From Tachypleus tridentatus (Eukaryota; Arthropoda; Merostomata; Xiphosura; Limulidae), in the NCBI RefSeq assembly GCF_004210375.1, contig NC_134825.1:68687558-68751557 (forward strand): a DNA stretch of 64,000 nt, read 5' to 3'. Both the position numbers and the translations under genes were made by a program. The notes beneath the pieces were generated by a model. That model did no database searches. It worked only from the letters and a program-made list of their open reading frames with translations, and was not told the DNA's origin. Below are positions 25,178 through 56,542 of the stretch, in pieces; within the stretch, counting starts at the first letter, position 1, and each line of letters starts with the position of its first letter.

Positions 25178-25283
25178 CTAAAGTTCATCATGCCTTTTTT
25201 CTGATTCTTGTAGAAATGAATCAGCTCTTCTTAAGGCTTCTTTCAAAAAGCTGTGATATTCTTTTTCCACAGGGTCATGAAAT
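25178..25283 (-). CDS. SELENON: SELENON exon 8: C-terminus ending in HDEL (aa 504-538)
   Basis: The terminal exon follows a 5.67-kb intron. The acceptor has a T-rich tract ending CTATACAG before 25283. It encodes [23 protein letters not shown], which aligns with the EDPSTATYMQFLKEGLRR tail of vertebrate SelN, then [10 protein letters not shown] and TAG at 25180-25178. The HDEL end is a canonical KDEL-receptor ligand. It reads in the only frame that joins to exon 7. It was too short for a simple ORF list and was found by following phase from exon 7. Confidence 0.9.
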
Positions 25284-28200
25284 CTGTATAGAAAAAAAGT
25301 TATAATATGATTGTCAAAAAAAATGACATTTTGTTGTTTTCATACAAATTTTTCAATTACAAACCATTCATTATTTATTCACCTATATAATCAACCAGAA
25401 AATAAATTAATATATATCTTTACTGATCAGACCATTAAATCTTTCACATCTGGATGGCTGGTTGGTTAATTTGGAGTTTTATGGCACAAAGAAGCTGGGC
25501 TATCTGCACCAAACATCCAGTAAAAAGTTAAAATTAAAGTAAATTTAGTAAAATTCATAAATGGAAATTAAGGTAAAACAAAACAAGGTTTAACAAAACG
25601 TAAACAGCGTAAAACCAATGTTAACATCTTGTCTACGGCAGTAAGAGAAAACTACAGTAATACAAGTTGTAAAGGACTTTCTGTAGCATAATTGTAATTA
25701 TCATAATTTGCCAGGAAGATTAACAGGTAAGTACACTGTTAGTCACCTGAAGTTGGCCTTTCCAGTCTTGGTTCAGAGTTATTTGATGTTACGGCCATTT
25801 TCTAATTTCAAATTGAACTAGATGTACTGTGATTCTTAAGAGAGATTCACATTAAAAAAGATTTAATGTGTAAATTAAAAAACTTAATTGGCATTAAAAA
25901 GATCAATGGTCTTTAAAAAACTAAAAAAACATTTCCAAGATAGACAGTGTCACCATCACCAGTAACAATGTCTAACGTTATGGACAAACCTTGGGACAGA
26001 ACATGTTTAAAATGGTGTCGTTGTTGAGAGTCATAACAACAGCAAAAAAGTAAACTATGGCTTATTGTGACCTGAGTGTTACACAGACTACACATTGGTG
26101 CATCAGTTCCAAATAAAAGAAAATGATGAGTTAAAAAACTGTGACCAATGCATAGTCTAGTTAGAACAACTTCCTCTTTCTGATCCTTACAGAAGCAAGA
26201 TGGCCAAAGTCCAATAGAGGGTTTTATCTGGGAAAGCTTGTTTTCGCATTGCTCACTCCTAATCGACTGCCAGCTGACATGGAGCTGAGCCTTGAATACA
26301 GGACCACAGTCCATGTAAGGAACAGGCACAGCAGTAATAGTGCCAGAGCAGATAGATTTAGCTGTGTATAAGCTCTGGACTGGGTAAGTGCAGGAACCCC
26401 ATTACAAAGCTGAAATCCCAGATGATGAATGGGTCCAGCATCTTCAGGCAGAGCCACAGACCAGTGACCCATAGTCTAGTTTTGATCAAAGAACAGCACA
26501 ATATATTGATCTGCTCCCCATGTGGTGGAAGAGTGGACATGGAGGATGTTCAGTGCTCTTGTACATTTGACTCATAGCTACTTGATGTGTGGTATAAAGG
26601 TCAGCTGAAGGTCATAGATAAGTCCCAAGAACTTTGTTTCAGGGACCACAGGTAGCACAACCTCACCAATACGGAGTTCAGGATCAGGGTGAATACCCTG
26701 TTGGTTGAAAAGTGTATGCAAACAGTTTTAGAGAGAAAAAGTTAAAGCCTTTTGCTGTGGTCCACTTCAGTAAACGATTGAGGGCAGTCTGTAGCTGCTG
26801 CTCAGTATATCTCATGTTCAACAACTGACATGAGATGTGAAAGTCATCAGCATAGAGCTCATTTGCAACAGTAAGAGGGAGTTGTTCAGTAATGGCATTA
26901 ATATTTATACTGAAAAGTGTGACACTCAAGACACAGTCTTGAGGGCTCCAAGTTCCTGTATAAAAGAACAGGAAAGTGTTGAGCCCACACGAACTTGGAA
27001 TCTCCTGTCCATTAAAATATTTTTAATAAAAATAAGCAAATGGTTACATAACCCATATAAATGGAGGTCTCAAAAAATGCCATATGCCATGTTGTATCAT
27101 AAGCTTTTTCAATGTCAAATAATATTGATACAAGATGTTGTCCTTTGAGAAAGGATTCTCTGACTGACATTTCAAGTCGAATCAGGTGGTCCATGGTGGA
27201 GTGCTGTCGTCGGAACCCACATGAGGTGGGCGCATCTAGATGGATGTAATTTCCCATGAAAATTGAAATTGTACCACTAAATAAATTTGACAATAAAATT
27301 CTAGTTGTTTCTCTATAAAATGAGAAAAAAAACTACAACCACAGAATTAAAATTTATTCTATAAAAACATATTTATTTTATATATAAAAATAAAAGGAAC
27401 TTGCAAATTTTTGGTTTGAAGTTGATTTTAGTATACTCTCAATAAAATCATCAGTGACTGAGAATTTCTTGAATTTTTTCAGAGCATAATATGGCACTCA
27501 TAGCCCTCTAAAGAGAAAGTCATGATATTTTTGAACAAAATATCCTTAACCAATTCTTGTAACTAGAAATAAAAGTGAAGTTTTTATCAATACTTAGCCA
27601 ATCACCATTTCTAAACCTTGATTATCACTGTGTGGTGTTATTACCTATATCTCACTGTTAGGAACACATGACTGTTTCAACTTAAGTACAACACAGGTGT
27701 TAAATTTAGTTATTTTTGGAAGAGAGTTTATCACAGGTTTGTTTACATATCTGTTTACAAATTATACATACATGTGACTGTTTCAATTTAAATATAACAT
27801 AGGTAATACATTTAGTTATTTTTAGAAACAATAGTTTATTAAAGGCTTGTTTACCCAACTGTTTAGAAATTATATGTTGTAAATTGGCTATTGTTGTATA
27901 ATTTTCATCCGTTATAAGAACCTTCTAAATTTTTCAAATGGTTTTAATTAAGTAGCATTGCATCATAATATCTTGTAGTGTGTCGAAAATTCTATGCCTC
28001 TGTTGAGCTATAAATATGCTAAAAATGTAGTTTAAGTTACTTAGATCTGGATAGATAGTTTGTTAGATCTACACCACATGACTGTGACTATAGCCATAAA
28101 GATTGTATTGTGGTGCTTTTTGAAGTGAACTCATCAAAGATTGTATTGTATTATCATAGGAGGGAAGAATAAGTTGTCTTTTCAAATTGTGCTCTCAAGT

Positions 28201-31200
28201 AATTAAATCAGCCAGTGTGGACTTTGACAAAAAAAAATAAAAAAATCAAGGCTTTGGATACAACTGTGGTAGCTAACAGCATAAGTAGTAAATTTCAAAG
28301 TGAAATCACTATTGATTGTGTTGTAATATACAGAACAGAGTAGAATAATTCATTTTGTCAAACTGTGTTCTAAAGCAATTGAATCAGCTTGTATGGACTT
28401 TGATGAAAAAGAGGAGTATTCAAAGTTCTGGATACAAATGTGATAACCAAAAGTATGACAAACATTTATATATATACATTTGACTTGTTTTTATATACTA
28501 TTTTAACACAAGTGGACTGTGTGTTGCTTATTTATTGTTGACATTTGTTGTCAACAAGTCACAGACACTTACTGTAAAAAATCTTACCCATACACAAACA
28601 TTTGAGACTCAGCTTTGAAAAGTCAGAAGTTAGCAACCTAAGCATGTTATGAAAGCTCTTTTTCCTTTCTTTTCAATTGTAAAAACCAAGCAAAAAGGCT
28701 TCCAGTTCAGTAGAGATTAGCATAGAGAACAGAACCTGGTGATAAAAGTTAAGATTGGTGACATTTTGCTATAAAAAACAGTGTTTGTAACAGCTTCCAC
28801 TAGAATTACAGTCCTAATTTTCTTTATAGCTTCAAAGAGCATGCTTTATTGTTTCATAATGCAATTGAATTGCAATGTTAAAGTATTGTAAGAAAATAAA
28901 TTATTTTTTGTTGAGAAAGGTGATGTAGGCTTAGTTAAATCATTTTGTACTTGATCCTATTAAGTTTTGTTGACAAGGTTCTTATTTTAGGCATCACTTG
29001 CATTATGTAATATCAGCCTAAGTAACTGTTTGAATAAGGAAACAAATTAACCAAAAATAAATGAAAATGCTCTGCCCACCAAGGGTATTGAAATCCAATT
29101 TCTAGCATTGTAAGTCTGGAGACAGACTGGAGGGGGCGTATTAAATGGTGATTATAAAGAAAGTCTTAGTTCAGCATGTCATATTTCACAAAGAGTATGG
29201 CTTAGGAAGGTGAAATTTCACAAGAATGTTAAGGATATCATGCAGATGCAAATATCACAATTGTTACATGTTGCCATCAGGAGTGCCACATTGGTTTCTT
29301 TCACATATTTCCCATGAGTGTAAATGGGCCTGACAAACATGTAGAGAGGTGAATGAATAAAATGTTATTGTACCAAAATATGCAATGTTGAGGCAGTTCA
29401 CAGAGAATGCTGTAGTGTGTAACTTCCATATCTCGACATCACTGATCATATTGGGCCTTGTTCCAGTGTTGCTGTGTGCAAGTTCATAAAAACATGTGAA
29501 GAGTCAGGTTGCACATGTGCTAAGCCATGCACAGACAGACAACTGACCCATACAGAAATAATCATAAATGTCAACCATATCAGACAAGAACAACACTAAA
29601 AGAGCTTGAATCCAGCAGCATGTTATAACAGCCAGTGTTTGAATTTTCTAATTTCAATTGTTTGCAAAGCTCCTCAATGAATTTTGCAGATGTTTTCTTA
29701 CAATCAATACCACATTCCAGCACTGAAGGAAACAGATTTAACAAGAAGTGTTAATTTTCCACCATTGTTTTTGAAAAGACTGAAAGTTGATGACCAGTGG
29801 TCTGCAAATATATCTTAAGGACTGACAAAGCACACTTAATCCTTTCTAGAAATGTCATTAGCACAACTACATTATCTGGTCAGAAATTAATCCACATGTA
29901 ACTTGATGAAACAAGTTTGGAAGAAGCACTTTCAGAACAGAATCATTTCATGTCATTTTCCTTGTGAATAGTCACCATATTCATCAGACAGGACACCAGT
30001 CAATTTCTAGTTATGAGGTACCTGAAGTTACAACAATACCGTGAGAAGTATCACCTGATTCCATGCCTTAAGAATGCATTTGTCCAGGTAGTGGCCAGCA
30101 AAACAGATGAAATGGTTGTTGTTGGCGAGATGTCCATTGTCACATGGACGCAATGCAATTTGGGCACTAAAGGAGAACATTTTGAATGCTACAGTGACTG
30201 ATTAGACATGTGATGAAAGTGGCAACATGTGGAATTTGCACCCACATGATACTTTCAAGTTGTGAAACTGTGTAAGATATAATGTGCTGAGTTGCAAAAC
30301 GTTTTTCATAATTACCTTATAAACTGCATATTAGTGTTGTAATGACAGATGACATACTATTATTTTTTAAATGATGTCATTTGTATACACTTAATACAAT
30401 ATTTTGTAAATCCTTATTCTTCTTACAGATCAATTGATTTAAAGCTCTTGAGACAGTTCCAAGAATAGAAGTTGAAAACTTGGCTCAATATATGTTGCAA
30501 ATGGAGATAAGAGCCTGGTTCTTATTATTTTTTGTTACTTTAAACCTTACTTTTCCATTTCTTGCTATTATGTTTTTCTTCCATTTGCATGTACAGCTTT
30601 TATAATAATTGATAAGGAATTAGTGATCCTGATTACAAGGGAGCTTTGAGGAAACTGTCCAACTTATTCTTATGTAACCAATCAGGAAATTCCAAATTTC
30701 CAACATATCATTGTGTAAGATCAATTTCCACAACTTTCTGATATCATCAAAATACTTCCAAAGTTTAATGATCACATTCATTTTCCAATGTTATAATGAT
30801 AAATTGAGATTATATCTAACTCTAGTATTTTCTAGTTTCATGACAAACAAACTTGGAAACTTATTAGTTAGTAAACTAACATTATCAGCATTCTGGACTA
30901 CACCATGAAAAATCTGTTTAGGAATTTTACAGCATATGTTTAATAATGATACTTACCCTTTCAAGATTGAGAAATCAATAATTTGATCACCAAAATCAAG
31001 AAGTGTGTTAGCATTAATATGATGAACAACTGTTCCATTTGGGAAGACAACCAAAGATTCCACTGGGAAATTATAATCTTTAAGAACAGATTCAGCAAGA
31101 TGGGATTCCAGGTCAGGTGGATTTCTGGATTTCAAGATCTGAGTTGCAAAGAAATATCTATTTTATGATGCTAGTACAATTAGTTAAAGAATAAATGAAA

Positions 31201-34200
31201 ACATTTAGAGTGTACATTGTTTCCTTCCAATAAGTAGAAAATTGTATCAATTGGTACAGAAATGATTTGATGTATAAGTGCAATAAATATAAAAATATTA
31301 CTACAATGAACTCACTCTAAATGATAAAAAGAATCTCTTGTTACATATGTACTACAACAGCATGCAGAAATGAAATATAACCTGTTAAGGTAGCAAATCC
31401 TTTAAAAAATGTTAAAGACTAGAAGTACACTTAATCATATCATAAAAAAGGAAAAAACTACACTATTTTAGTTTAAGTATCATTTTGACTAAGTAGCCAA
31501 TTGGTTCATTTCAAATTTCAATTTCTTGATGGTAAGAAGATACTAAAAATTAGCCTCTCTGATGAAAAAAATGTCTATAGTTACAACTTGATCATGCATT
31601 GTTAATGCATGACATTATGCTTAAACTGCCCTTGATCCTTCAGTTCAAATGATCTTTGATGCACTCACAAAAATAATGAGTGGTATACCTTGTCATTTTT
31701 TCCCTCCTTCATATTATCACATCAATTACAAGCTTTATTGGGTTTTCAAATTAAAAAAAAATTAGTTGTATTATTAAGAAATATGTTCACAGGTTCACTT
31801 AACCTGTATTTATAAATCACTGCAGTGTCTTTATCAGTGAAACAGTATTTAAAATAGATGAAAGGTAATGAACTTTTTTCTTCACTTGTATTAGGCCAGT
31901 ATAGAATTTAGGATTTATTGTCAAATTAATATGTTTCATAATATTCTAGTCTAACAAGGATCATGACAAACCTTACACAACATACAAATCTCATATCTAA
32001 TTAATATTAATAGCATTTTGTAATTCAGCTAGCCTATTAAGTCCTAAATATTTAACAAAAAAAACTTTGTCAGCAGCAGTATACAACAGACAGAAATTGC
32101 AGTTAAAATATTATTATGAAATCTTCTCTTTTTTTACTGGAACCTTGTATTTTGCCACCTAAGAATGAGATAATTAATGTGATTTCTAGTCACATTGTGA
32201 TATTCTACAATTTGAATAAACTGAAAACTTACTTCTAAATCTGACACCAATGCCCAAGTGCTAACAAAATAATTTTGAAGAAGTTGAAGATTGGGCGGAC
32301 TTGCAAGAGCTCCATCTCGCAAAGTCCGCCCAGATCCTCAGCAGGATTGGTCATCTAAAGCTCCCCAAAGTAACACAGCATGAACAAGTTTGTTGTAAGT
32401 TTGTGCTCGACTAAAAGCATCTGTGAAATTATAGTATGTGACCTAAAAGAAAAGAAATAATATCTACTTTTGAATCAATTAAAGTTCACAATACTAACTA
32501 AATACACACAAAACCATACATAGGAAATGCATATTTGAATTTTGATCTTGTTGTAACAAGCATCAACATACATTTGTAATACATTGTCTTATGGTAACAG
32601 TTTCTGATATAAATAATATACACATTTACAAGAACAAACTACTTATTCCTTAACATTCTTGGAATAAAAGTACAAGAAAGATATACATCACTTTATAGAT
32701 CAGAATAAATTAATATGTTCTTCACCCATTCATCATTAAGTTCAGAACATTTCTACCTTTCTTTTTCATCTTACAAATATATATATATGTAATACTCACA
32801 CTGATGCATGTTCATGGGTACATACAATCATTAAAACAATATGAACTTCACAATAACTATATATTTATACATGTGTAGATTTTTTTCTAAGTTCTCCGAT
32901 TTAAATCAACTATTTTTATTCTTAAACAAGCTTTAAAATTTTAAATTTATTAAAGGAATTTCAACAACTCTGATGAAACTATGGACAATGAAGAAGTAGT
33001 CATGTTGAAGTGCAAAGGGAAAGCAAAAAAGTTTTACAAAGAAAAAATGCTATAAATCAGTAACACTTTTCTTGTGGAATGGATCATCAGTGTAAAGATG
33101 TTCCAGAGATGCTTTAAATCTTCAATAAAACTAATATAATAATGTTAAAATAGGACATTGTAATTTCTCAAGTATAAATAAAATGCTCCACAGCAACAAT
33201 CACTCAAAATCATTTCAATGCATTTATGGCACTGGTTGATAGAGATGAAACATTTTTTTCAAATGAACAACTGGAACTTGTTTAACTTTATGAGTTTACA
33301 CAGCCAATTCATAATACCTCTATGATCTGTGAACATCTTTTCTTATTTAATAAATTTTACTGTTATGTTTCTTTTTTTCTTTTAATGCCAATTTTGTCAT
33401 CAAATGTCAGAGAGCTAATAGAAAACACAATGTCTTCAACTCAAAGAAACAGTAGAGTAAAACAAAATTTCAAGAGAACTGTTAGGTACATTCAGGAGGA
33501 AGTCAAGCAATAATAGGAGAAGATCAATTCAGATAATGTGTAATTGTATGACAAATTAGGGCAAACAATTCCTCACTTGTGTGTCCCCAACCTCAAGCTT
33601 GTAATTGTGCTGATAGCAGGTTGTGGAATATCTGAAGTGGTAATATTAACTTTTTATTCATAATAAAATGATAAAAATATGAAACTTATTCAAATACAAG
33701 AAAAGAACAACTGAGGTTAGTTATCACTGAGTTTTTAAAAAATAAAACGTTATGGAAAGATAGAAGTGGTCTTTCTAGTTCATAAAAAATTAAAAAGAAA
33801 AATGTATGACAAGAGCACAATAAAAATGTCTTGACTAAAGCACTGATTAATGAGAAGAGACAGTTCAGTTGAATCAATAGCTATCAGAAGAGTCAGGAGA
33901 GTTTGTTACACTCCTATCAGTGGAGGGTTGTTACACAATGATTATGCATGCAAGATACAGATGAATCATAATAATCATGGATAGTGTTTGAGTGTAAGAC
34001 TTGTGATAAAAATTGTTGTATATAGGGAGCAGCACTGAATGAGAATAGCTAATGTTTTCATTATCACTGGATAATGGGTAATAAGATTATTAAAACATAT
34101 CACAAATTAAATTAGAAATAATTAACTAACCACTTATTAGATTTATATTGTATGTAGTTTAAAATAAGAAATACATCAGAATAATATTCAATAAATAAGG

Positions 34201-37200
34201 ACTTGAATCATCAGAATATTCTACCATTGCCTAACATACTCATATGAAATGTAAAGCTATTCTTTGGGAAGTGCATTGTTTAGAGGCAAGACTTCTCAAA
34301 GTTGAGCAGAAATGAAAATCAGAAGATATTTTTATTTTGCCATGCGGGTTACCCTAAATAAACATCACAAAATGAAAAATAACAATTTTAAAATATTTTT
34401 GATTTAAAGATTGTTGAAATACAGTAAAGATTGTGGTATGATAACAGTCTGCATTTCCTGCTTCTTATTACAATAGTTTTTTAGATTTTGTTAGTTATCC
34501 TCATAATGTGCAGATGTCACATAACATCTGGCAAAGAAAAAAAATCAGACTATCCTGCTTTCATTCCAGTTGCTTATGTTCTTTGTCGTCATCTTCAGAT
34601 AACACCTAACATGCCTGCACATGATAAATTACGTGATGGCTCATGGTTACAACCCCTTTTATGCTTGAATAGAAACAATTAGTCATTTGGATAACACTAG
34701 GGTAGAAAAGTCTGACATTTCCACATTATTTAGACAATATAGGTTTATTCAGTTTTATATAAAATCTTGGCCAATAAAGTTTGAAGAACAAGCTAAACAT
34801 AACTGTCCAGCACCCTAAGCAAATATACACAATATTTTTGTGTTATCAAATAAATATTGTTCATTGTTTTACAGTGTCCAGTCTTTACTTTTTCTCATAA
34901 ACTCAGCTTTGCAAAACATACAGAAATTCTCTATAATAAATATCTTGTCAAATCTCCTGTTACTCAGCAGACCTATCTTGTCATTCTAAGTAAAATCAGT
35001 TTTACCCAAGTAAACATATAAAACTGACTTAAAAATCTGTGGCTCAAAAAAAAATCTGGCACAACTGACTAAAGAAATACAAAAAGCCAGAAGAAACCTC
35101 ACCCATAAGTATATACTGTTGTATTTAACATTCATCAGTATACCAAAATAGTAGTATCTTTAAATTGTACAGACAATTATATTAATGACTGAACAGAAAA
35201 CATCAAAAAGCTAATAACTTAATTATTTTGATTACATTAAGAGCAATTCAATAAAAGTGGATTATTTAGCTTCTATTAAAGTATTAATTTGAATGATATT
35301 CTAGTTGTTAATGATATTACACGTAATTATACAAACCTGTTTAAATGGATACATTAGTCTCTCTAAAAGCTTATAGGCTTCCTTATATGGTATCTCCTGT
35401 GTCCACTGTAACACCTCATTAACTTCTTTATCATGATGTGCATCTTGACTAGTCTGAATATTCTGTCTTTCTTTGCTGAATGAGGAATCAATATATTCTA
35501 ATGACATTTGAGGAATATACCCAATATCAACTTCCATGTCCTCAGTCTCACTAGGTCCATTCAACCATTCCATGTCTATTTAAAACATAACAAGTACATG
35601 AAAATAATACAACTCAATAAATACCAAATCAATACAATTGCAAAAACGTGGCTTAATCACTATCATTAAAGAAACTCTAAAGTCAATATGTAAAAGAAAC
35701 TTTATACAGGAATGAATACATGCAGAAATTTAAAAATTTTATCAGTTACTCTATAGACTAGCACTAGCAATTTATTGTTGTGTTTCAGTCTGTTTTACAT
35801 AAATATCTTAAGATCTACCATATTCTATAATGGGATTCAATAATGAATTGCACTTAACTTCAATATTGTAAAAATTTTAGATTAAACTAACTGCTCTCTA
35901 CAAGAAAGGAATCATAACTGCTTGTATTAAAACTTCTCAAGGTTTAAGTATCAAATTTACTCCTAAGACCAATAATATGCGAGAAATCAGCATTTTAAAA
36001 ATAAGTCAATCTGTTGAATAAAGCAAAATAAACTTACCAACATTAAGTTTCCTGTCTGTTGGAACTTCCATTTTAAAATGTTTAATAACATTGCCACTTC
36101 TACTAATAATTAATTGCCCTCTAAACTGTGCTGGAGTAAACCAAAATGGATATTTTGGTGGTTCATTCAACTGAAATTCTGCATGAAGCCTATATTTTGA
36201 AAAATAATTGTTAGAAAACAAAACCACAATTCAACAGCAAGGTTTCACAGAATTTATTGTACTACATATGTAAGATAAAAATAATTAACAAAACGTACAA
36301 ATGGATGCTCACAATGCATTAAATAGTCAATATGAAGCTCGAGTACTTACTAAAAAGATCTAAATGTTCATACTTTATATTCAAATATTCATATTTGAAT
36401 AACAAATTCTTGCATGCCTATATGCTTGTTCTTTGAAAGCAGTTACGAAGCATAAAAAACTTATAACATTACATTTTGAAATTTCACTAGTACAGAATCT
36501 AAGACCAAAACACTGATATTAAATAAAACTAGAAAATGATAAAATAACTGCCTTGACCATGACTCTTTTTAAATGCATTTTTAACACTCAAATGTCAAAA
36601 TCAACAAACTTTTATACATCCTTCAAGAATATGATCAAATTAGAAGTACACTTTTCACTGGAGTTTAAGCAATGGAAACGATTGAACATATCTTTTAAAG
36701 CAACTACAATGCGAGTCAGAATCAACAGAGAATTCTCAGTACTGCACACTAATTAAAAATAGTTATGAAATGTATTCTACACTCAACATTGTATTTGTTT
36801 ACCCTCATTTTTGCACTTTATGAAATTTAAACATGTGCACTATATAAACATACCATCACACAGACAGCATCACAAACCACAGATCCCAGACTCCACTTCC
36901 ATTCTCTACAAATGATACAATGACATGAAACTTGAGGAGAAAGAGTCCTTTACAAGAACAGCATTTTATAAACTTCTGACCAACTGTACATACACCAGCA
37001 GAGCAGTTCCCTCAGCAACCTGATAAAGGTCTCGGCATAAAGACTAAAGCACTGACTATTCCTATGCTTCAAACAAGGTTATTCTTTTGAAGTACCCTGT
37101 TGGTACTGCAGAGTCCAAGGACTATTTTTCATTAATTTTATATTCCTAACAAAAGTCCATGTAGAAGAAATTCTTCTTGTTGGGTAGTACATGATTTTGA

Positions 37201-40200
37201 AGATAAATGGCACCACATCTAAATCAAACTACCAGTGTTGTATTCCACAAAATGGGAAATACAATTTCTGCACACAGCATCACGAAAAAGAGATACAAAC
37301 ATTGTAGTGCAGAATGAAATAATAATTGAAAAGATCTCAACTTTACTGATGGTGAATAAAATGTAACATTAAAGAAATTTTAGCCCACTTCCTTGGCATG
37401 CATTATGAAGCAATTTTTCTCAACCTCTGTGTTAAAATTTTGCACTTATACACATTGGTGCATTAATGTGAACACTGACAGAAAGAAATTGTACAAAAAT
37501 TCTCAGATTTGTAGTTTGGTTACAAATCTCTTACATTTCCAATGAAATTCTGTTGCCCATTTTCATACAATCTCCTTCAAGTCATTCCTCTATCCAATAG
37601 TGTTTAAACTTCATGTTTAGCTATTTTTAAAGTTATTCATTATCAACAATTGTTTAGACAATATGATGAGAACTAAGGGATATAATAATGAAATTACAAA
37701 CAGAAGAATCATCACATGTGGAAGAAATGGCAAATACATTCTCAAGGGATGACAGTTTCCTAGCATACATAAAACTTAAATTTTGAGATAAGCAGAAAAA
37801 TGTTAAAATAGTCACTAAGTTGTTTACAAACAAGACTTCTTAGAGCTGCTTACAAATTACATTTTTTTCACTTTAATTTGTAATTTACACAATATAAATG
37901 TTATAAAATGTAAGAGATTCTTGAGTTAAACATTGTTAAAATAGGGTTAGAAATGTTACTTTTAATTAGATTTTGAAGCTTGATATGTAAAGGTGTACTC
38001 AAAACTTGAAAATTATTTGCTATTCATGACAGAGTCAAGTATTAAAACAATTCACAACATTCATAAGAAAGTCACAGACCAATAAGAAAACAAAATTTTT
38101 AATAATCTTTCATAAGGCTTTTGAAATGAAAAAAAAATGAAAGAAGTGTGGAAAAACGTTTATTGAAAATATATCACTTTTCTTATGACATTTTATAAGC
38201 TACAAAGTGCTAAGGGTTCTATTAATAAATACAACTATTCTGGTAAGTCATTATGGGTGTATTTCACTTGCAGGGCACTGAACCTGAATATGATATGGTG
38301 TAATTTCAGATTACAAAATACAGTTTATTTATAATTAGTGTCTCTGTTTGTCAAGCAAAAGTGTTAAAGAAGAAATTTTAGAAAAAACTGGTTTTATTTT
38401 TCATTTTATTTCAATATTTGTTTTTGCATTTAAAGCAAAGCTAAATGAGAGCCATTTGCACTAGCCTTCCCTAATTTAGCTGTGTAAGACTAGAGGAAAG
38501 GCAGCTTGTTATCACCAACTACCACCAACTCTTAGGCTACTCTTTTACCAATAAACAGTGGGACTGACCATAACATTATAATGCCCCTGCAGCTGAAAGG
38601 ACAAGCATGTTTGGTGTGACATGGATTCGAACCCAAAACCCTCAGATTATGAGTCAAGAGCCTCAGCCACCTGACCATGCCAGGCCTAGAAAAACTGGTA
38701 ATGCAGTAAACTTACCATTTTACAAACTTTGAAGTATCTGGTTTACTAAAATATGGGCTTACTACATTTGGATTGTCTAAGTGTGAAGGCTGTTCAAAAG
38801 AGTTTCATGTGGCAAATCGAAGATATTTTAAAGAAGAACCACTTAAGAATCTGATATTCATTGTGAATGCACCTTTATATTGTACATCATGCTTTTTTAT
38901 ATTTATTAATAAGCAGTTTACAATCTTGTTTATTATAAATAATTATTCAGCAATCATTTTCTTTTGGTACACAGAAAATCTTTAAATAAAGCTTTTCTCT
39001 CTTAAACTCTATATTACAACATAGAGAATTAAAATGAAGATCAGGAAATAGTTTTTAAAAACCTCATATTCAAAACCCACCTCACCTGAAAAGGATATCT
39101 ATGTATTCTTCATTCATTGCTCGAACAACTGCAGTCATTCCTTGAGGTGCAAAACGGGAGTGAAGGAATACATTTTTGTGAAACATTCCAAGCATTGCAT
39201 GTAACAATTTTAGATGAGGTTTGACTTTTGGAGGAAGCATTCTTGAACTGGACAGCTGACCAGAATAAGTATCTAGCTCTGATGGTATTATCCACCAAGA
39301 TTTTCCAAGGTATAGATCAGATGGAGGAAGAAATATATAAAAATTAGAAACGGCAAATTCCTGCCAAAGATGGTGAGGCTTCTTCCACTGCAGAAGACCT
39401 TCCAACACCCTTGAATGATTCTTAACAAAAATGTAGCCTAATTTAGCAAAATTATGAAATGTACATATGTAAAAGAAATAAATATGTATAAATAGTTTCC
39501 TGTTTTTCTGCAAAACAATTTCCTTGATTCATTGCTGTGAAAATACATATTTTGATAGTTAATGTATGTGCACAGAAGATTAATAAATAAATATATTTGT
39601 AGTTTGTAATGCATTACATGCAGTCGTATACAAACAATACAGATTTCATGTGTAAGAATTAGAAATCTTCATAAACATCTTGTAAATGTTTAAATTAATT
39701 AAAACATGAAAATAATTACTGCTTTGAATGTTTTTTTCCTCAGGTGACCTCAACTACTTTGTTGTTACATATATCTATCTATTCACAGTAATATAATGCA
39801 CGGTCTGTAAAGTTTCACTGAACTTGGCCAAAGAGCTGTTACAAATTGTTTAACAACCCCAGTTACCAGTGTATGAGTTACTTTAGCTTGAGGAAAGTTA
39901 GAACTGCCACTGTGAATTAAAATATCAATAAATGTAAAAAGGCAGAATAAAAGTGAATCTAAGAATCAACATTTTACCCTATTTCTGCAATCTACTGATT
40001 TTTCGATTTTTCTCCTTATATATAGCACTCTCCTTTTGTGCATTGTTTGTATTTTTAAATCTTTAACAGCTACATTCCTTTTAGATATAAAGACTGGCCA
40101 TGTTATTAGAATCTCCAATCAAACATAGTGTAAAGGATTACATTTTTTTATATAAACAACAGAATAATCATATAACATTTAATTGCTTAAATCCTAACAT

Positions 40201-43200
40201 TGTAGAAATGTATTTATATTACATTACTCTATAAGGCATGAACAATTATTTTTCTGACATTCTAAATGGTACTAAAGTTTCACAGATCTGCTTTTCAAGG
40301 ACATCTACCATTAAAGTATATCAATAAAAATAATCAAATGAGAATACATTTGTCTTTATAAAAAAACTGTGGCTACCAATAATAGGATGATTGAAGAGAA
40401 ATGGACAGACTTTGTAAGTGTAACAGATGGCTCAGTATATCAACTGACCAATTATTTTTTATTTTGGTCAGGATAAAGCCACCTCCAAACATACCCTCCA
40501 AAATCAGTCCAAACACTGCTCATTTATCTCAGATACATCCAATAAGATGAAGTTACAGCCTTTCTTAGAGCATAAAGAATTGCATACAATGAACAACTGG
40601 ATGAATGTGGCATTGATTGATGAGTTTCACCCACTTCTTTACTGACAATAGAGTAAAATTATTTTTAAAAAAATGCAACATTAAACAGTTTTTGTTGTGG
40701 TGAACAATGCATGCAACTTGAGGTGGTATAATGGGGTGGATAATGATAACAACAATATAATATTGAATGTAACCCACATTACTCAAACATTTTAATTCTA
40801 GTTCTTTTAACCTTTTCACATTTCCCACTGTCTACACAATCAACTGTACCATTCATAACCTTGAAACAGCTTCAATGATTGGTTTTCTGATTTTTCTGCA
40901 CATAAACATAAGCACACAAGAGACATTCATGTATTTGAAAACTCTTTCATAGTGAATTTAAATGATGTAAAAATAGATAAATAAATGGAATAAATCAAAC
41001 TGCAATACAATACTGTGATGACAGGTAAATCCATGGAAGGCAATTGAATGGGATTCTGTAAATTCTTATCCATGGAGCAATTGCTTGGCCTATTAAAATT
41101 TCCATAACAATTTGTCTCTGAGTTTGAAGGATGAAGGAATTTTCATCTGTAAAGCAACATTCTGAAACATGACAGATGCAAAATCTAGTCTTTGGGCCTA
41201 AATTACAGATGCATGTCTTCATGCAGTAATTAGGCTAAATATATCCCAGCTTACATGTGACTTTGATAAATTCTCATTTGACAGAAAAGTACAGACCTTC
41301 CAATAAACTGATGAGTGTGAACTTTTTATCTCTTAGCTGCAAATTTAGTACAAGTGAGCTGTATGACCCACATATGGATTATACTAGGCACTTCCATCAC
41401 AATTCCATGAAACAAAAGTTTACATTTAATACATTGACAAAGAAGCTTTGCTTGCATATAAGATAATAAATGTAATTAAAGATATCTTCCCATTGATTTA
41501 TCCTGGTACAAACTGATCAACATATTGTTTTTATTATATCAGACTTTTAATTAATTTGTGAAAACATACAGTACATTTTTCAGAAAGGTATGGTACACAA
41601 GTTTGTATCGCAATCAAGTGCAGACATTTTGTGTTAATTATTAAACTACTAATAAAGAAATACTCTGGTTATGTTTTAATCTTCAGTTTTAGAATTAGTT
41701 ACCTACATTTACAAGCATTTTCACAAAGAAAATCTATGATTGAAAATACTAATACAAAACATCAAGAGTAAAAAAATATAACAAAAAAAAATTGATGTGA
41801 ACTTCATAATTTTATATGTGAATCAGCCTCAATTTGGAGGAATAATTTATTAACAAGACAAAGCAGTATCTCAAGTAGATGTAGTGTTGTCACAACAACA
41901 TTATGAGCACCTAATTATCTTGTTTTTTAATAACCAGCCATACACTAATAAATATAGTACACCATAACAGATGCTTATCTCTCTAGAATTCTATAGATTA
42001 TCATGTTCATTGCTGAGGGTGCATATGTACATGTTATATGTAAAAAAATACAATTACACCAATATATACAATGTATACTCATATAAAAAAAATGCAAGTT
42101 CACTCACTGGATCCATATGGAAAACATCTTTGGTTAAGGATGTCAACACAAGTGGTTTAAAAAAACATTCAATAGTGACTTTTTCTTCATCTGGTTTTAA
42201 GCCTATATTTATTTCTTCTTGAACCTGCATGTATAAAAGCATATATTTTTCTGAAAATTATAAACACTTTAAGTAATTCTCCTAAACACCTGTCATTACG
42301 AAAATAGCATACAATAAATATTTTCACATTACTCCTTAAAAACAAAGCTTCATGAAAATAAAAGCAAAACAAAATGTAATAACTTCATTATACAAGTTCC
42401 AATCAATGTCTGAAAGACACAATCATTAACAAGGCATTATAAGCATTAAATATCTTGGCTTTTTACTGCAAATATAATTAATCTTAACACGCTCCTTTTG
42501 ATTTAAAAAAAAACATTAGCATGTCACACATACACTCTTTTAAGAGTTTCTACTAACTTTTATGGTATTTCTTTTTGTAAGCTTTCAGTCTACTTATGAA
42601 GAAAAAACAGCCTCCCCTTCATTCTGTATTTAGTTCTTACAAAAATATTAGTACAAAAGAAATATACTTAAATATTTATTTCACCGAGTTTACAAACTGT
42701 CTAGGAATTTAATAACATAAAGGCTTCCCTTTTTTTATGGAGGAGGGGGGCAAATTCTGAAAACAACAGGGTGAAAGAATATACGATTATGACTTGGAAG
42801 AGACATGTTGTAGGTTCCAGTTAAGAGAAATTAATAACACTAATACCAGTTTCTGAAATGAGTTGTCACTTGCAGCAAAAGAGGCTAGATCAACACTCTA
42901 CAAGAGTCTATAAAGGTGGAATTAATAAATTCTTGAGAAATAAAAGGTAAGCTAAGTTTTTACTTCTTCTCAAGAGTAGATTTGCAAGAAGTTCAAGAAC
43001 ATCTTTGTAGGGTTAACTGTCCCTTGCTGTCCATATGCTGCTGTGTCATGTGCAGCTGACACACAAAAATAAATAATGGAAAGATAATCTATAAAATAAA
43101 AGTCTGGATGAACATTTATAAGATCATTAACAATTTTGAAAATGATATAAAATGGAAAATGTCTCTTGTTATTCACATATAGCTCTCGTCTTTGAAATAA

Positions 43201-43748
43201 AACCTCATAACCTGACCAACACTGTATTACAAGGAAACACTTTAGCCTTCAAAATATATAACTTTTAAACTACAATGTTATATTTAGTTTCTCTGATAAA
43301 ACCTCATTTGTGTGATGATATCAATAAACACAAATTTGTAACAGACTGACCAACAATGTATTACATGTAACACATTTCACCCTTTAAAATATATAATTTA
43401 TACCTTATAATGTTATATTCAGTTTCTCTGAATTAAAAAGGCATTGTGGATAACAAGTGATATTCTTCTTACCTCATACTCAGTTTTTTTTTCTGAATTG
43501 GCATCCTCTGACGCTATAAGATGTCTATAATTTGTTTGGTCCAAAAATGGAAGAAACTCTTCGTAGCTTAACACTCCATCATTATTTTTGTCGATACCAT
43601 TAAATACTTGTAACTGCCAATTATCATGTTCTTGATAAACATTACTTTCAATAACTATGTTTTTCTCTAACAGTTCATATAAGTAATGTCCCAAGTATGC
43701 CAGAAAAATAACTATCAATATTGCAATAAAAGTAGTTCGTTTACTCAT
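25178..43748 (-). CDS. SELENON: Selenoprotein N, complete spliced gene (8 coding exons, 538 aa)
   Basis: SelN is an ER membrane selenoprotein; in vertebrates it is linked to calcium handling through SERCA2 and to muscle integrity. The CDS is the join, on the minus strand, of 43473-43748, 42108-42224, 39086-39420, 36038-36189, 35337-35575, 32233-32442, 30957-31138 and 25178-25283. All introns are GT-AG and all phases close (1617 nt with stop). Visible parts: membrane helix about residues 5-24, EF-hand loop 53-64, the conserved [30 protein letters not shown] and [11 protein letters not shown] blocks, S-C-U-G at 406-409 with U encoded by TGA at 32340-32338, and C-terminal HDEL at 535-538. Length fits the family (human about 556-590). 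The topology expected of the family, cytosolic N-terminus and lumenal C-terminus, puts the EF-hand, SCUG and HDEL in the ER lumen. Identity is very secure; the exon joins are inferred from splice sites and alignment by eye. Confidence 0.96.
25452..27300 (-). mobile_element. I/Jockey-like LINE, copy 3, inside SELENON intron 7
   Basis: Minus-strand reading: [22 protein letters not shown] then [12 protein letters not shown] (about 27240-27100), [33 protein letters not shown] (26929-26800) and [19 protein letters not shown]. Then, after a jump, comes the post-RNase-H tail [29 protein letters not shown] (about 26190-26060). The 3' end, near 25452, contains the same tail sequence as copy 2 (a GGCACAAAG block, and CACCTGAAGTTGGCCTTTCC). 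Most of RNase H and the RT thumb is deleted. It sits in the same strand as the host gene and ends about 170 bp upstream of the last exon's acceptor. Confidence 0.85.
27668..27875 (+). repeat. Diverged 100-bp tandem duplication
   Basis: CATGACTGTTTCAACTTAAGTACAACACAGG ... TTTAGTTATTTTTGGA recurs about 104 bp on as CATGTGACTGTTTCAATTTAAATATAACATAGG ... TTTAGTTATTTTTAGA, with matching ends (TGTTTACAAATTAT and TGTTTAGAAATTAT). Confidence 0.75.
28120..28600 (+). repeat. Dispersed repeat, copy 2, with a diverged tandem unit
   Basis: 28120-28290 and 28300-28470 are diverged direct copies (ATTGTATTGTATTAT versus ATTGTGTTGTAATAT; CAGCCAGTGTGGACTTTGA versus CAGCTTGTATGGACTTTGA; GGATACAACTGTGGTAGC versus GGATACAAATGTGATAACC). 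The right part matches 9060-9285. Confidence 0.6.
29066..29120 (-). repeat. SINE family C fragment in SELENON intron 7
   Basis: The minus strand reads GTCTCCAGACTTACAATGC...TTTCAATACCCTTGGTGGGC. This aligns with the B-box region of the 62749 copy. Confidence 0.6.
30957..31138 (-). CDS. SELENON: SELENON exon 7 (aa 444-504)
   Basis: A 182-nt exon. The acceptor TTTGCAACTCAG precedes 31138 and the donor GTAAGT starts at 30956. It encodes [14 protein letters not shown] then [12 protein letters not shown], the most diagnostic SelN C-terminal block. It ends in phase 2 and is completed by the first base of exon 8. Confidence 0.96.
32233..32442 (-). CDS. SELENON: SELENON exon 6: selenocysteine exon, SCUG motif (aa 374-443)
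   Basis: A 210-nt phase-0 exon. It encodes [11 protein letters not shown], then in-frame TGA at 32340-32338, then [11 protein letters not shown]. Conserved SelN sequence continues on both sides of the TGA, so the codon must be read as selenocysteine (Sec408). The S-C-U-G motif is the redox centre and resembles the thioredoxin-reductase GCUG. The donor is GTAAGT at 32232 and the acceptor TTTTAG precedes 32442. A standard gene finder will stop at the TGA or start a false ORF at the TTG at 32322. Confidence 0.97.
32293..32331 (-). promoter_or_regulatory. Selenocysteine redefinition element (SRE) hairpin just after the UGA
   Basis: The hairpin starts exactly 6 nt after the UGA. The outer arm GGGCGGACTT pairs perfectly with AAGTCCGCCC (10 bp). 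After one bulged U, GCGAGA pairs with TCTTGC (one G-U), closing a 6-nt loop TGGAGC, so there are 16 pairs with a single bulge. Vertebrate SEPN1 is known to carry a readthrough-promoting stem-loop beginning 6 nt after its UGA. It is much more GC-rich than its surroundings. Confidence 0.9.
34872..35030 (+). repeat. Dispersed repeat related to 15466-15610, in SELENON intron 5
   Basis: See the partner entry. Similarity is colinear over about 150 bp, with indels. Confidence 0.6.
35337..35575 (-). CDS. SELENON: SELENON exon 5 (aa 294-373)
   Basis: A 239-nt exon with acceptor AATAG before 35575 and donor GTTTGT at 35336, a weaker donor than the others. It encodes [10 protein letters not shown] and NMEVDIGY-like [11 protein letters not shown], then a variable polar stretch (about aa 320-350), and ends in the conserved MYPFKQ. 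Confidence 0.95.
36038..36189 (-). CDS. SELENON: SELENON exon 4 (aa 243-294)
   Basis: A 152-nt exon. The acceptor ATAG precedes 36189 and the donor GTAAGT starts at 36037. It encodes [17 protein letters not shown], one of the most conserved SelN blocks. The exon ends one base into an Asp codon completed by exon 5. Confidence 0.95.
38379..38699 (-). mobile_element. SINE family A in SELENON intron 3, with target duplication
   Basis: TAGAAAAACTGGT flanks both sides (38379-38392 with one extra A, and 38687-38699). The body is more diverged than the other copies (CTTCCCTAATTTAG, ATGCCCCTGCAGCTGAAAGG), indicating an older insertion. Confidence 0.93.
39086..39420 (-). CDS. SELENON: SELENON exon 3 (aa 132-243)
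   Basis: A 335-nt exon, acceptor TTAAG before 39420 and donor GTGAGG at 39085, ending in phase 2 inside an Arg codon shared with exon 4. It contains the SelN signatures [16 protein letters not shown] and HSRFAPQGM. The open frame runs on upstream of the acceptor, but those residues do not match the family, so 39420 is taken as the exon start. Confidence 0.95.
42108..42224 (-). CDS. SELENON: SELENON exon 2 (aa 93-131)
   Basis: A 117-nt phase-0 exon. The acceptor ends TGCAG just before the GTT at 42224; the donor is GTGAGT at 42107. It encodes the acidic linker and first strand of the lumenal domain ([15 protein letters not shown]), which aligns with the PDPSEETLTIEARF region of vertebrate SelN. 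Confidence 0.92.
43211..43435 (+). repeat. Diverged direct repeat beside the exon 1 donor of SELENON
   Basis: CTGACCAACACTGTATTACA ... AAAATATATAACTTTTAAAC ... ATGTTATATTTAGTTTCTCTGA at 43211-43300 is repeated at 43348-43433 (CTGACCAACAATGTATTACA ... ATGTTATATTCAGTTTCTCTGA). It lies in intron 1, 40-260 bp from the splice donor. Confidence 0.8.
43473..43748 (-). CDS. SELENON: SELENON exon 1: start, membrane helix, EF-hand (aa 1-92)
   Basis: The first coding exon starts at the ATG at 43748-43746. An in-frame TAA at 43760-43758 sits just upstream, with only GTG and ATT codons between, so this ATG is the first possible start. The N-terminus MSKR is followed by a hydrophobic stretch (about residues 5-24) that serves as signal anchor. 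The EF-hand loop 53-64 has D at 1, N at 3, D at 5, S at 9 and E at 12, so it looks able to bind calcium. This matches the single EF-hand of SelN, a proposed lumenal calcium sensor. The donor after TATGAG is GTAAGA at 43472, phase 0. No TATA box was recognised upstream. Confidence 0.95.
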
Positions 43749-54749: not shown

Positions 54750-56542
54750 TTAGTGCGACACTTGAAATTTAGAGTCCTTGCAGAACTTGTCAATATCAGC
54801 TTTGACAGAAGTGGTTGCCACTCTTAACTGACTGGTCAAATGTTCATCAGTCAGCTGACTTCTACATTTGGTTTTGATGAGCTTCATTTTGGAGAAAAAT
54901 TGCTCACAGCAGTAGGTGCTACCAAAAAAGGGAGGCAATTCTTTGTGCATGACGGGACAAATTGGGAAACTTTTCACGTACACAGAGTTTGTAAAAGTCT
55001 AGCAAACTGTTTTCAGAGAATTTCCTTTTAGTGTCCATGTCAGCCTGCAGTTCAATGAGTTCCATTTGGCAATCATCAGGACTGTCTTCCACTGCCAAAT
55101 CAAAAGGTTGAGCGAACAATTTCAATCTAATTTCAGTTTGTCTGAAATCTGGAAATCTGTTTGCAAACTCATCACGCAGCTTTTGTACACTGGTTCCATA
55201 TTTGGTGCAATCCAGATTAGGAAATTCCAGTTTCCTGGTTGCAAGACATGTAAAATGGGTCAATATGGCTCTTCTCAACTGAACCTGGAAAAGTTCCAAT
55301 TTCTTCTCAAAAGCACAAATATGCTCAAACAACTTATTCACAAGTTGACTTTTCCCTTGTAGTTTTAAGTTTAAATCAGACAGATGCTGTGTAATGTCTG
55401 TGAGGAATGCTAAGTCATTCAGCCAGTTCTCATTGCTCAAGAAGTCCACATTCTGACGTTTGCTCTCCATGAAGAACTTAATCTCCTCTCGCAGATTCCA
55501 GAATCTCTTCAAAGTAGCAGCTCTACTAAGCCAACGTACAGCAGAGAAGTACAAAACATCTGAATACTCACTGTCCAGCTCATCTAAAAAAAGTTTTAAA
55601 TTGTCGATGATTTAATCCTCGTGTTCGAATATAATTTACGCATTGGACGACATTTTTCATGACTTCTGCAAAATCCAGAACTTTGGTGCACAAGCTCTCT
55701 TGGTGAATAATGCAATGGCTTACAACTACGTCTTGTGCTCCAATTGCAGTTAGAAATTTCTTGGTGAATCCATTTGTCCTACCTGTCATGGAAGGAGCAC
55801 CATCTGTTGTAACACCACATAATTTATAAGGATTCAGTTCAAACTTTTCTACAACCTTAAGCACTTGTTCACAAATATCCTGTCCTGTGGTTGTGGAGGA
55901 AAGGCTTGCCATATCTAAAAACTCTTCGAAAACATCAAAGCCTGCAGTAACAGCTCTGATGAAAATGACAAGTTGGGATGTGTCATTGATATCAGTGCTT
56001 TCATCCAAAGCCAGACTGAAAGCTTCACACGAATTCAATCTCTCTTTCAAAGTTTCTTTGATGTCCTCTGAAGATCTTTTGTCCTGCGTGAGACAGTGAA
56101 GCGGGAAAGGCTAGTTCGCTCCACCAAATATTTTTTCTCTGGACATGCATATTCTGTGAATATTGTTAAACAATTTTTTAATAAATTCTCCATCACTGAA
56201 AGGCTTTCCCTTTTTTGCCATACATTTACAAAGCTTAAAACTCAGTTTTGTCACCAGTTCTGAATTTTTCTTGAAAGTGGTAAAACACCTTGTTGCTTTT
56301 CAATGGATGTTTTAAATGTTCAATTTGTCCTTTCGTGCCTGACCAACAATTTCATCAAACTGGGAGGAGTGCTTAGTTGCGTAATGTCGCTTAATATTGT
56401 ACTCTTTCATGACTGCAATTGTAGTTTGACAGACGAGGCAGACAACACCTTGATTATGTGGGACAACAAGATATTTTGTGCACCATTCACTGTTGAATAA
56501 CCTTCCCTCATCATCAATTTTTCGTTTCTTAACTGCTGACAT
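54750..56542 (-). pseudogene. hAT transposase, Charlie/GTF2IRD2-like, frameshifted
   Basis: Starts at the ATG at 56542 (MSAVKKRKIDDEGR). A BED-like zinc finger follows (LVCQ ... RHYATKH, about aa 25-55). The catalytic core shows FSLALDESTDI near 56010 and LCGVTTDGAPSMTGR near 55810. The C-terminal hAT dimerisation region WSTYCCEQFFSKMK...SQLTDEHLTSQLRVA is at 54930-54800, ending at TGA/TAA near 54750. A stop near 56312, a stop/shift near 56100, a shift near 55570 and another near 54930 break it into four frames. Resembles transposases annotated as GTF2I-repeat-domain protein 2-like. It would bind the terminal repeats and cut and paste the element; this copy cannot. Confidence 0.88.

What the first reader, a model, noticed from the sequence alone, without database searches (positions are those of the whole stretch)
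25178..25283. Selenoprotein N ending in an HDEL ER-retrieval signal
The last exon, joined in the only phase that closes the gene, ends KRHDEL-stop. SelN is an ER protein with its C-terminus in the lumen, so a terminal HDEL would be read by KDEL receptors. The vertebrate protein, as I recall it, ends without such a motif and depends on its membrane segment. This would give the horseshoe-crab-type SelN a second retention mechanism, or keep a cleaved soluble form in the ER.
Basis: partly seen in the sequence, partly recalled or inferred. Interest (0 to 1): 0.75.

Follow-up and report, generated by a model that had tools for sequence, protein, structure and literature searches.

The report
Selenoprotein N with ER-return tail
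A horseshoe crab's selenoprotein N gene ends in HDEL, the standard 'return me to the endoplasmic reticulum' tag that the human protein lacks, so this animal probably holds the protein in place in an extra way.

Summary
On the minus strand, exon 25283-25178 joins in frame to 31138-30957 (phase 1, GT..AG) and reads [37 protein letters not shown]. Its first part aligns with the end of human SelN as I recall it; the last eight residues are extra. It is the only [H/K/R]DEL-stop among 8,357 six-frame stops of the window; a Markov null gave 5 in 208,969. The gene otherwise looks like ordinary SelN: one N-terminal membrane segment, EF-hand, SC-UGA-G and a very stable recoding hairpin at the UGA. No second copy was found; coagulogen marks a horseshoe crab. 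Two KDEL receptor loci keep the HDEL-reading residues. Human SelN is type II, C-terminus luminal (PMC7474598), and is classed as lacking a retrieval sequence (PMC9195201). A working HDEL signal is the best reading, inferred and not shown. No transcript, other chelicerate SelN or ER-protein control could be examined, and no SECIS was found.

The parts
25178..25283 (-). SelN last coding exon, ends KRHDEL-TAG
25178..25192 (-). HDEL codons CAT GAT GAA CTT and stop TAG
30957..31138 (-). SelN penultimate exon ([13 protein letters not shown]; its N-G-T sequon aligns with the human site that I count as Asn497, isoform 2 numbering, reported glycosylated)
   Evidence: PMC7474598 (passages)
32233..32442 (-). 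SelN exon with SC-TGA-G selenocysteine codon at 32340-32338
32285..32340 (-). Hairpin from the UGA, SRE-like recoding element, -36.5 kcal/mol
   Evidence: z -6.78, 0 of 200 shuffles; the 54 bases after the UGA, -31.5 kcal/mol: 0 of 2000 synonymous recodings as stable, under each of two codon weightings
35337..35575 (-). SelN exon (VDMEW...DIGYIPQM)
36038..36189 (-). SelN exon (HAEFQL...PFWFTPAQF)
39086..39437 (-). SelN exon (WWIIPSEL...FAPQG)
42104..42224 (-). SelN exon 2; 3' end uncertain (42108 with the stronger donor is out of phase; 42104 keeps the frame)
43473..43748 (-). SelN first coding exon: MSKRTT tail, membrane segment, EF-hand
   Evidence: (EF-hand_1 E 7.3e-05, below Pfam's gathering score)

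Best explanation
The gene encodes an otherwise ordinary selenoprotein N of a horseshoe crab: a type II ER membrane protein with a very short cytosolic tail (MSKRTT), a luminal EF-hand and a selenocysteine redox site, whose luminal C-terminus carries an eight-residue extension ending in HDEL. SelN molecules that leave the ER are bound in the mildly acidic Golgi by KDEL receptors through this tail and returned by COPI carriers. Any form cut off from its membrane anchor would be retrieved in the same way. Shown here: the sequence, frame, homology, no second copy found, and presence of receptors with the key residues. Inferred: luminal orientation in this species, exposure of the tail, receptor binding and retrieval.
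For: In-frame canonical junction and stop. Exon homologous to the human C-terminus with the extension added after it (human sequence recalled). Ending far above chance. Frame kept open past the UGA with a strong SRE-like hairpin, so the C-terminus is meant to be translated. Hydropathy: all 9 of 528 windows over 1.6 start within residues 1-10; the best window starting after residue 30 scores 0.95. Human SelN: type II topology confirmed by protease protection with C- and N-terminal tags and by glycosylation (PMC7474598, passages); one glycosylated site aligns with N-G-T in exon 7. Two KDEL receptor loci keep R47, D50, E117, W120, R159, Y162, W166 and R169. [quoted passage not shown]
Against: No transcript evidence. 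No second species to show conservation, and no paralogue. A membrane anchor may already keep the protein in the ER, making HDEL redundant or inert. The last exon folded alone is predicted as helix to residue 33 of 34 with high confidence, whereas the receptor needs a free extended end; that model is of 34 residues without an alignment and says little. No SECIS element established, so translation past the UGA rests on conservation and the hairpin. Exon 2 to exon 3 keeps the frame only with a weak donor or a missed exon.
Confidence: 0.72

Rival explanations
1. The tail really ends in HDEL but is inert: the membrane anchor or partners keep SelN in the ER and the ending is a coincidence or relic.
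For: Human SelN lives in the ER without a recognised retrieval sequence (PMC9195201, passages). No conservation across species could be tested.
Against: Chance of the ending is about 1e-5 to 6e-5 per stop, and it sits at the luminal end of a protein of the right compartment.
Confidence: 0.15
2. The ending is a model or assembly artefact: another terminal exon is used, or the six-A run is miscounted.
For: No RNA evidence; a 5,673-base last intron; a homopolymer just before the signal.
Against: The exon is homologous to the vertebrate C-terminus; of five run lengths tried only the assembled one gives HDEL, and an error would very rarely create it. No second SelN C-terminal exon was found in the genome.
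Confidence: 0.05
3. HDEL acts mainly on a soluble form, made by cleavage of the membrane segment or by an alternative start, not on the anchored protein.
For: Human SelN appeared outside muscle cells after ER calcium depletion (abstract: detected only then; discussion: undetectable in some vehicle samples), and the authors suggest cleavage (PMC9195201, passages).
Against: I did not identify, and had no tool to predict, a cleavage site; the N-terminal segment looks like an anchor.
Confidence: 0.15

Closest known systems
Vertebrate selenoprotein N (SELENON/SEPN1)
   Same: Same gene family: 49% identity over the aligned 412-residue luminal part to the human sequence as I recall it, N-terminal membrane segment, EF-hand, SCUG redox site, UGA-adjacent hairpin.
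   Different: Ends eight residues later with HDEL; cytosolic tail about 6 residues instead of the 30 stated for human (PMC7474598, passage). Human SEPN1 is counted among proteins without a retrieval sequence (PMC9195201, passage).
K/HDEL retrieval of ER-resident proteins by the KDEL receptor
   Same: Exact C-terminal HDEL on a luminal end; receptors with the reading residues present.
   Different: Usual clients are soluble (recalled); this one is predicted to be membrane-anchored.
Type II membrane proteins with luminal ER signals (Arabidopsis glucosidase I, PMC2799409; yeast Sec20p with HDEL, recalled)
   Same: A type II protein kept in the ER with help of a luminal signal; Sec20p uses HDEL itself (recalled, not looked up).
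   Different: Different proteins; Arabidopsis glucosidase I combines cytosolic arginines with a luminal signal; the abstract and passages that I saw do not call it HDEL.
Selenoprotein M
   Same: An ER selenoprotein with a C-terminal retention signal (PMC10650576, passage).
   Different: Thioredoxin-like protein with a signal peptide, not SelN.

Membership tests
Selenoprotein N | Sequence homology over the luminal domain | tested here: met
Library checks did not help: 0 PDB sequences up to E 1; Pfam gave only two sub-threshold hits for this part
Selenoprotein N | SCUG motif with in-frame UGA | tested here: met
   UGA at 32340-32338 in [18 protein letters not shown]
Selenoprotein N | Hairpin just after the UGA (SRE) | tested here: met
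   -36.5 kcal/mol, z -6.78, 0 of 200 shuffles; 0 of 2000 synonymous recodings under each of two weightings
Selenoprotein N | SECIS element in the 3' UTR | tested here: inconclusive
   Not found by Rfam; my own scans gave only candidates not above background or without a null; the genome-wide SECIS search found 0 matches but also rang in 0 of 14 control genomes
Selenoprotein N | N-terminal membrane segment and EF-hand | tested here: met
   Hydropathy over 1.6 only in windows starting at residues 1-10; EF-hand_1 E 7.3e-05, 22.5 bits against a gathering score of 25.4, so below the curated cut-off
K/HDEL retrieval client | [KHR]DEL as the very last four residues | tested here: met
   KRHDEL-TAG
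K/HDEL retrieval client | C-terminus in the ER lumen | not testable with these tools
   Inferred from human topology (PMC7474598) and a shared glycosylation sequon
K/HDEL retrieval client | Receptor able to read HDEL in the same organism | tested here: met
   Two loci on C13 with R47, D50, E117, W120, R159, Y162, W166, R169 (numbering by eye against a recalled vertebrate sequence, roles from PMC8248988); R5 not read; binding not tested
K/HDEL retrieval client | Loss of ER localisation when the signal is removed | not testable with these tools
   Needs an experiment

The most novel reading that the evidence does not exclude
SelN has switched, between animal lineages, the signal that keeps it in the ER: vertebrates use the long cytosolic tail and membrane segment, whereas horseshoe crabs have almost no cytosolic tail and use a high-affinity luminal HDEL. 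This would put the calcium-sensing reductase under KDEL-receptor control, including its release when ER calcium falls.
Probability: 0.3. Interest if true: 0.6.

Novelty: new variant of a known kind. Interest (0 to 1): 0.45.

Why it matters
How SelN stays in the ER, and why the human protein appears outside muscle cells after calcium depletion (PMC9195201), is not settled in the passages I saw. A natural SelN with HDEL gives a ready-made construct: moving the tail to human SelN, or removing it from the crab protein, tests directly whether anchor and retrieval are interchangeable. It also warns against carrying vertebrate retention logic over to invertebrate SelN.

Tried and rejected
Paralogues: a C-terminal query gave the two window exons plus one weak hit on C10 (44% over 34 residues, E 0.98). 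By eye it is partly antisense to reading frames that look transposon-like, and I rejected it as chance. Despite the horseshoe-crab genome duplications (recalled), the middle query gave 4 matches, all in the window's own exons. The first two exons were not searched for.

Relatives elsewhere: the 1 locus from viral contigs (L001) looks by eye like a glycine-rich protein that shares [12 protein letters not shown] residues, not SelN. A scan with the alignment found no relative in viral contigs, and both scans of bacterial/archaeal contigs found none. This fits PMC2375036, which says SelN appears specific to animals (passage). PDB: none up to E 1.

SECIS: the best candidate of one scan (23837-23788, minus strand, score -10.0) is equalled or beaten by the best of 9 of 20 stretches of the window, among which its own may be. 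In a second scan the best (-8.3) is equalled or beaten in 4 of 14. One search gave two candidates, one of them the same, but had no null; one search had none either. Not claimed.

In-genome controls on tails of BiP and calreticulin did not complete (tool busy in every attempt), so I cannot say whether HDEL is common among this animal's ER proteins.

Literature, all ten searches: 'selenoprotein N'+HDEL gave 1 paper, in which HDEL is a diet; 'selenoprotein N'+arthropod 7 (listing); SELENON+KDEL 8 (listing); topology terms 4 (one read by passages); SelN+selenoproteome+Limulus 0; KDEL receptor+type II+HDEL 3 (one read by passages); horseshoe crab+selenoprotein 12, none on SelN by title or abstract start (listing); SelN+arthropods+selenoproteomes 1 (passages); SRE+SEPN1 7 (two read by passages); SEPN1+'ER retention' 6 (two read by passages). 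PMC8248988 was opened by DOI and read by passages. No paper was read whole. I found no mention of an HDEL-ended SelN in these, a library of open-licence papers only.

Full report
What is there. Read on the minus strand, the window holds a selenoprotein N gene from ATG 43748 to TAG 25178 in eight identified coding exons. Exons 3 to 8 join in frame with GT..AG introns. Exon 2 to exon 3 keeps the frame only with a weaker donor four bases on, or with a missed small exon. The last exon, 25283-25178, is entered in phase 1 from 30957 across an intron of 5,673 bases and reads [38 protein letters not shown].

Is the exon right? By my own count the recalled human sequence gives sequons at 449, 471 and 497 in isoform 2 numbering, three of the four numbers in PMC7474598 (passages), which is some check on the recall. 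The only other hit of the C-terminal query in the 2.17 Gb genome is a chance-level one, so no rival terminal exon was seen. If the last intron were retained, the protein would stop right after ...SILKG.

Is it more than chance? Among 8,357 stops in six frames of the window this is the only one preceded by [H/K/R]DEL; a Markov null gave 5 in 208,969, and composition gives about 5.5e-5 for [HK]DEL. Changing the six-A run by one or two bases in either direction destroys the ending, so a sequencing error is an unlikely source.

Is the end translated? HDEL lies downstream of the UGA at 32340-32338. The frame stays open and homologous to human on both sides of it. From the UGA on there is a hairpin of -36.5 kcal/mol, z -6.78, matched by 0 of 200 shuffles. 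For the 54 bases after the UGA, 0 of 2000 synonymous recodings are as stable, under each of two codon weightings. Such elements in SELENON are called SREs; mutation work on them is described in PMC8704476 and PMC3541580 (passages). Against this, no SECIS was established, and a genome-wide SECIS search was uninformative because it rang in 0 of 14 control genomes. AATAAA at 25167-25162 and 25136-25131 follows the stop closely; an mRNA ending there would have no room for a SECIS.

Would a receptor see it? Human SelN is a type II protein by protease protection with tags at either end and by glycosylation (PMC7474598, passages). In the crab model all 9 of 528 hydropathy windows over 1.6 start at residues 1-10, and the best window after residue 30 scores 0.95. 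The genome has two KDEL receptor loci on C13, plus one partial match on C2 that I did not read. Both C13 loci keep residues described for signal binding: R47, D50, E117, W120, R159, Y162, W166, R169 (PMC8248988, passages). I did not read R5 in the first exon. That paper reports HDEL binding about ten-fold tighter than KDEL, with abundant ER proteins tending to carry KDEL. The 34 residues of the last exon fold alone as a helix to residue 33 (mean pLDDT 94.2). This leans against a free tail but is weak evidence for so short a piece.

What organism? The four matches at C11 9.02 Mb to coagulogen have 73-91% identity (query recalled), so it is a horseshoe crab; the species was not determined.

What it means. 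The most likely reading is a real retrieval signal on an anchored SelN, as in other type II proteins that use luminal signals (PMC2799409, passages; Sec20p recalled). [quoted passage not shown] HDEL would retrieve such a form in the crab, although the same paper shows that retrieval-dependent proteins also escape when calcium falls. Conservation across chelicerates is the missing test: no eukaryotic collection was available, and no paralogue was found to compare. BiP and calreticulin tails in the same genome could not be checked because the tool stayed busy.

Verdict. Observation confirmed; interpretation plausible and partly supported; a new variant of a known kind.

Noticed in passing
window 32340-32285, minus strand: Very stable hairpin starting at the SelN UGA (-36.5 kcal/mol), an arthropod counterpart of the vertebrate selenocysteine redefinition element.
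   Followed up: partly
window 25177-15000, minus strand: No convincing SECIS downstream of the SelN stop, and AATAAA signals within 20 and 50 bases of the stop (25167-25162, 25136-25131). Use of these would give mRNA without a SECIS.
   Followed up: partly
window 42104-42108, minus strand: SelN exon 2 to exon 3 is out of phase with the strong donor GTGAGT; a weaker donor (GTGAAC) four bases on, or a missed small exon, restores the frame.
   Followed up: partly
window 26690-27332, minus strand: Decayed reverse transcriptase pieces (RVT_1, E 1.8e-4 and 2.9e-5, below cut-off) inside the last SelN intron.
   Followed up: no
window 54919-56050, minus strand: Transposase-like reading frames; one matches DUF4371 (E 1.1e-4, below cut-off), the other matched nothing.
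   Followed up: no
G000 C13 103.55 Mb and 158.80 Mb; C2 88757663-88757803: Two KDEL receptor loci on one contig and a partial third match, while no second SelN was found.
   Followed up: partly
G000 C7 19.2-29.1 Mb and C11 42.9 Mb: Many diverged coagulogen-like exons (14 of 18 matches, 39-55% identity) besides the coagulogen gene proper at C11 9.02 Mb.
   Followed up: no
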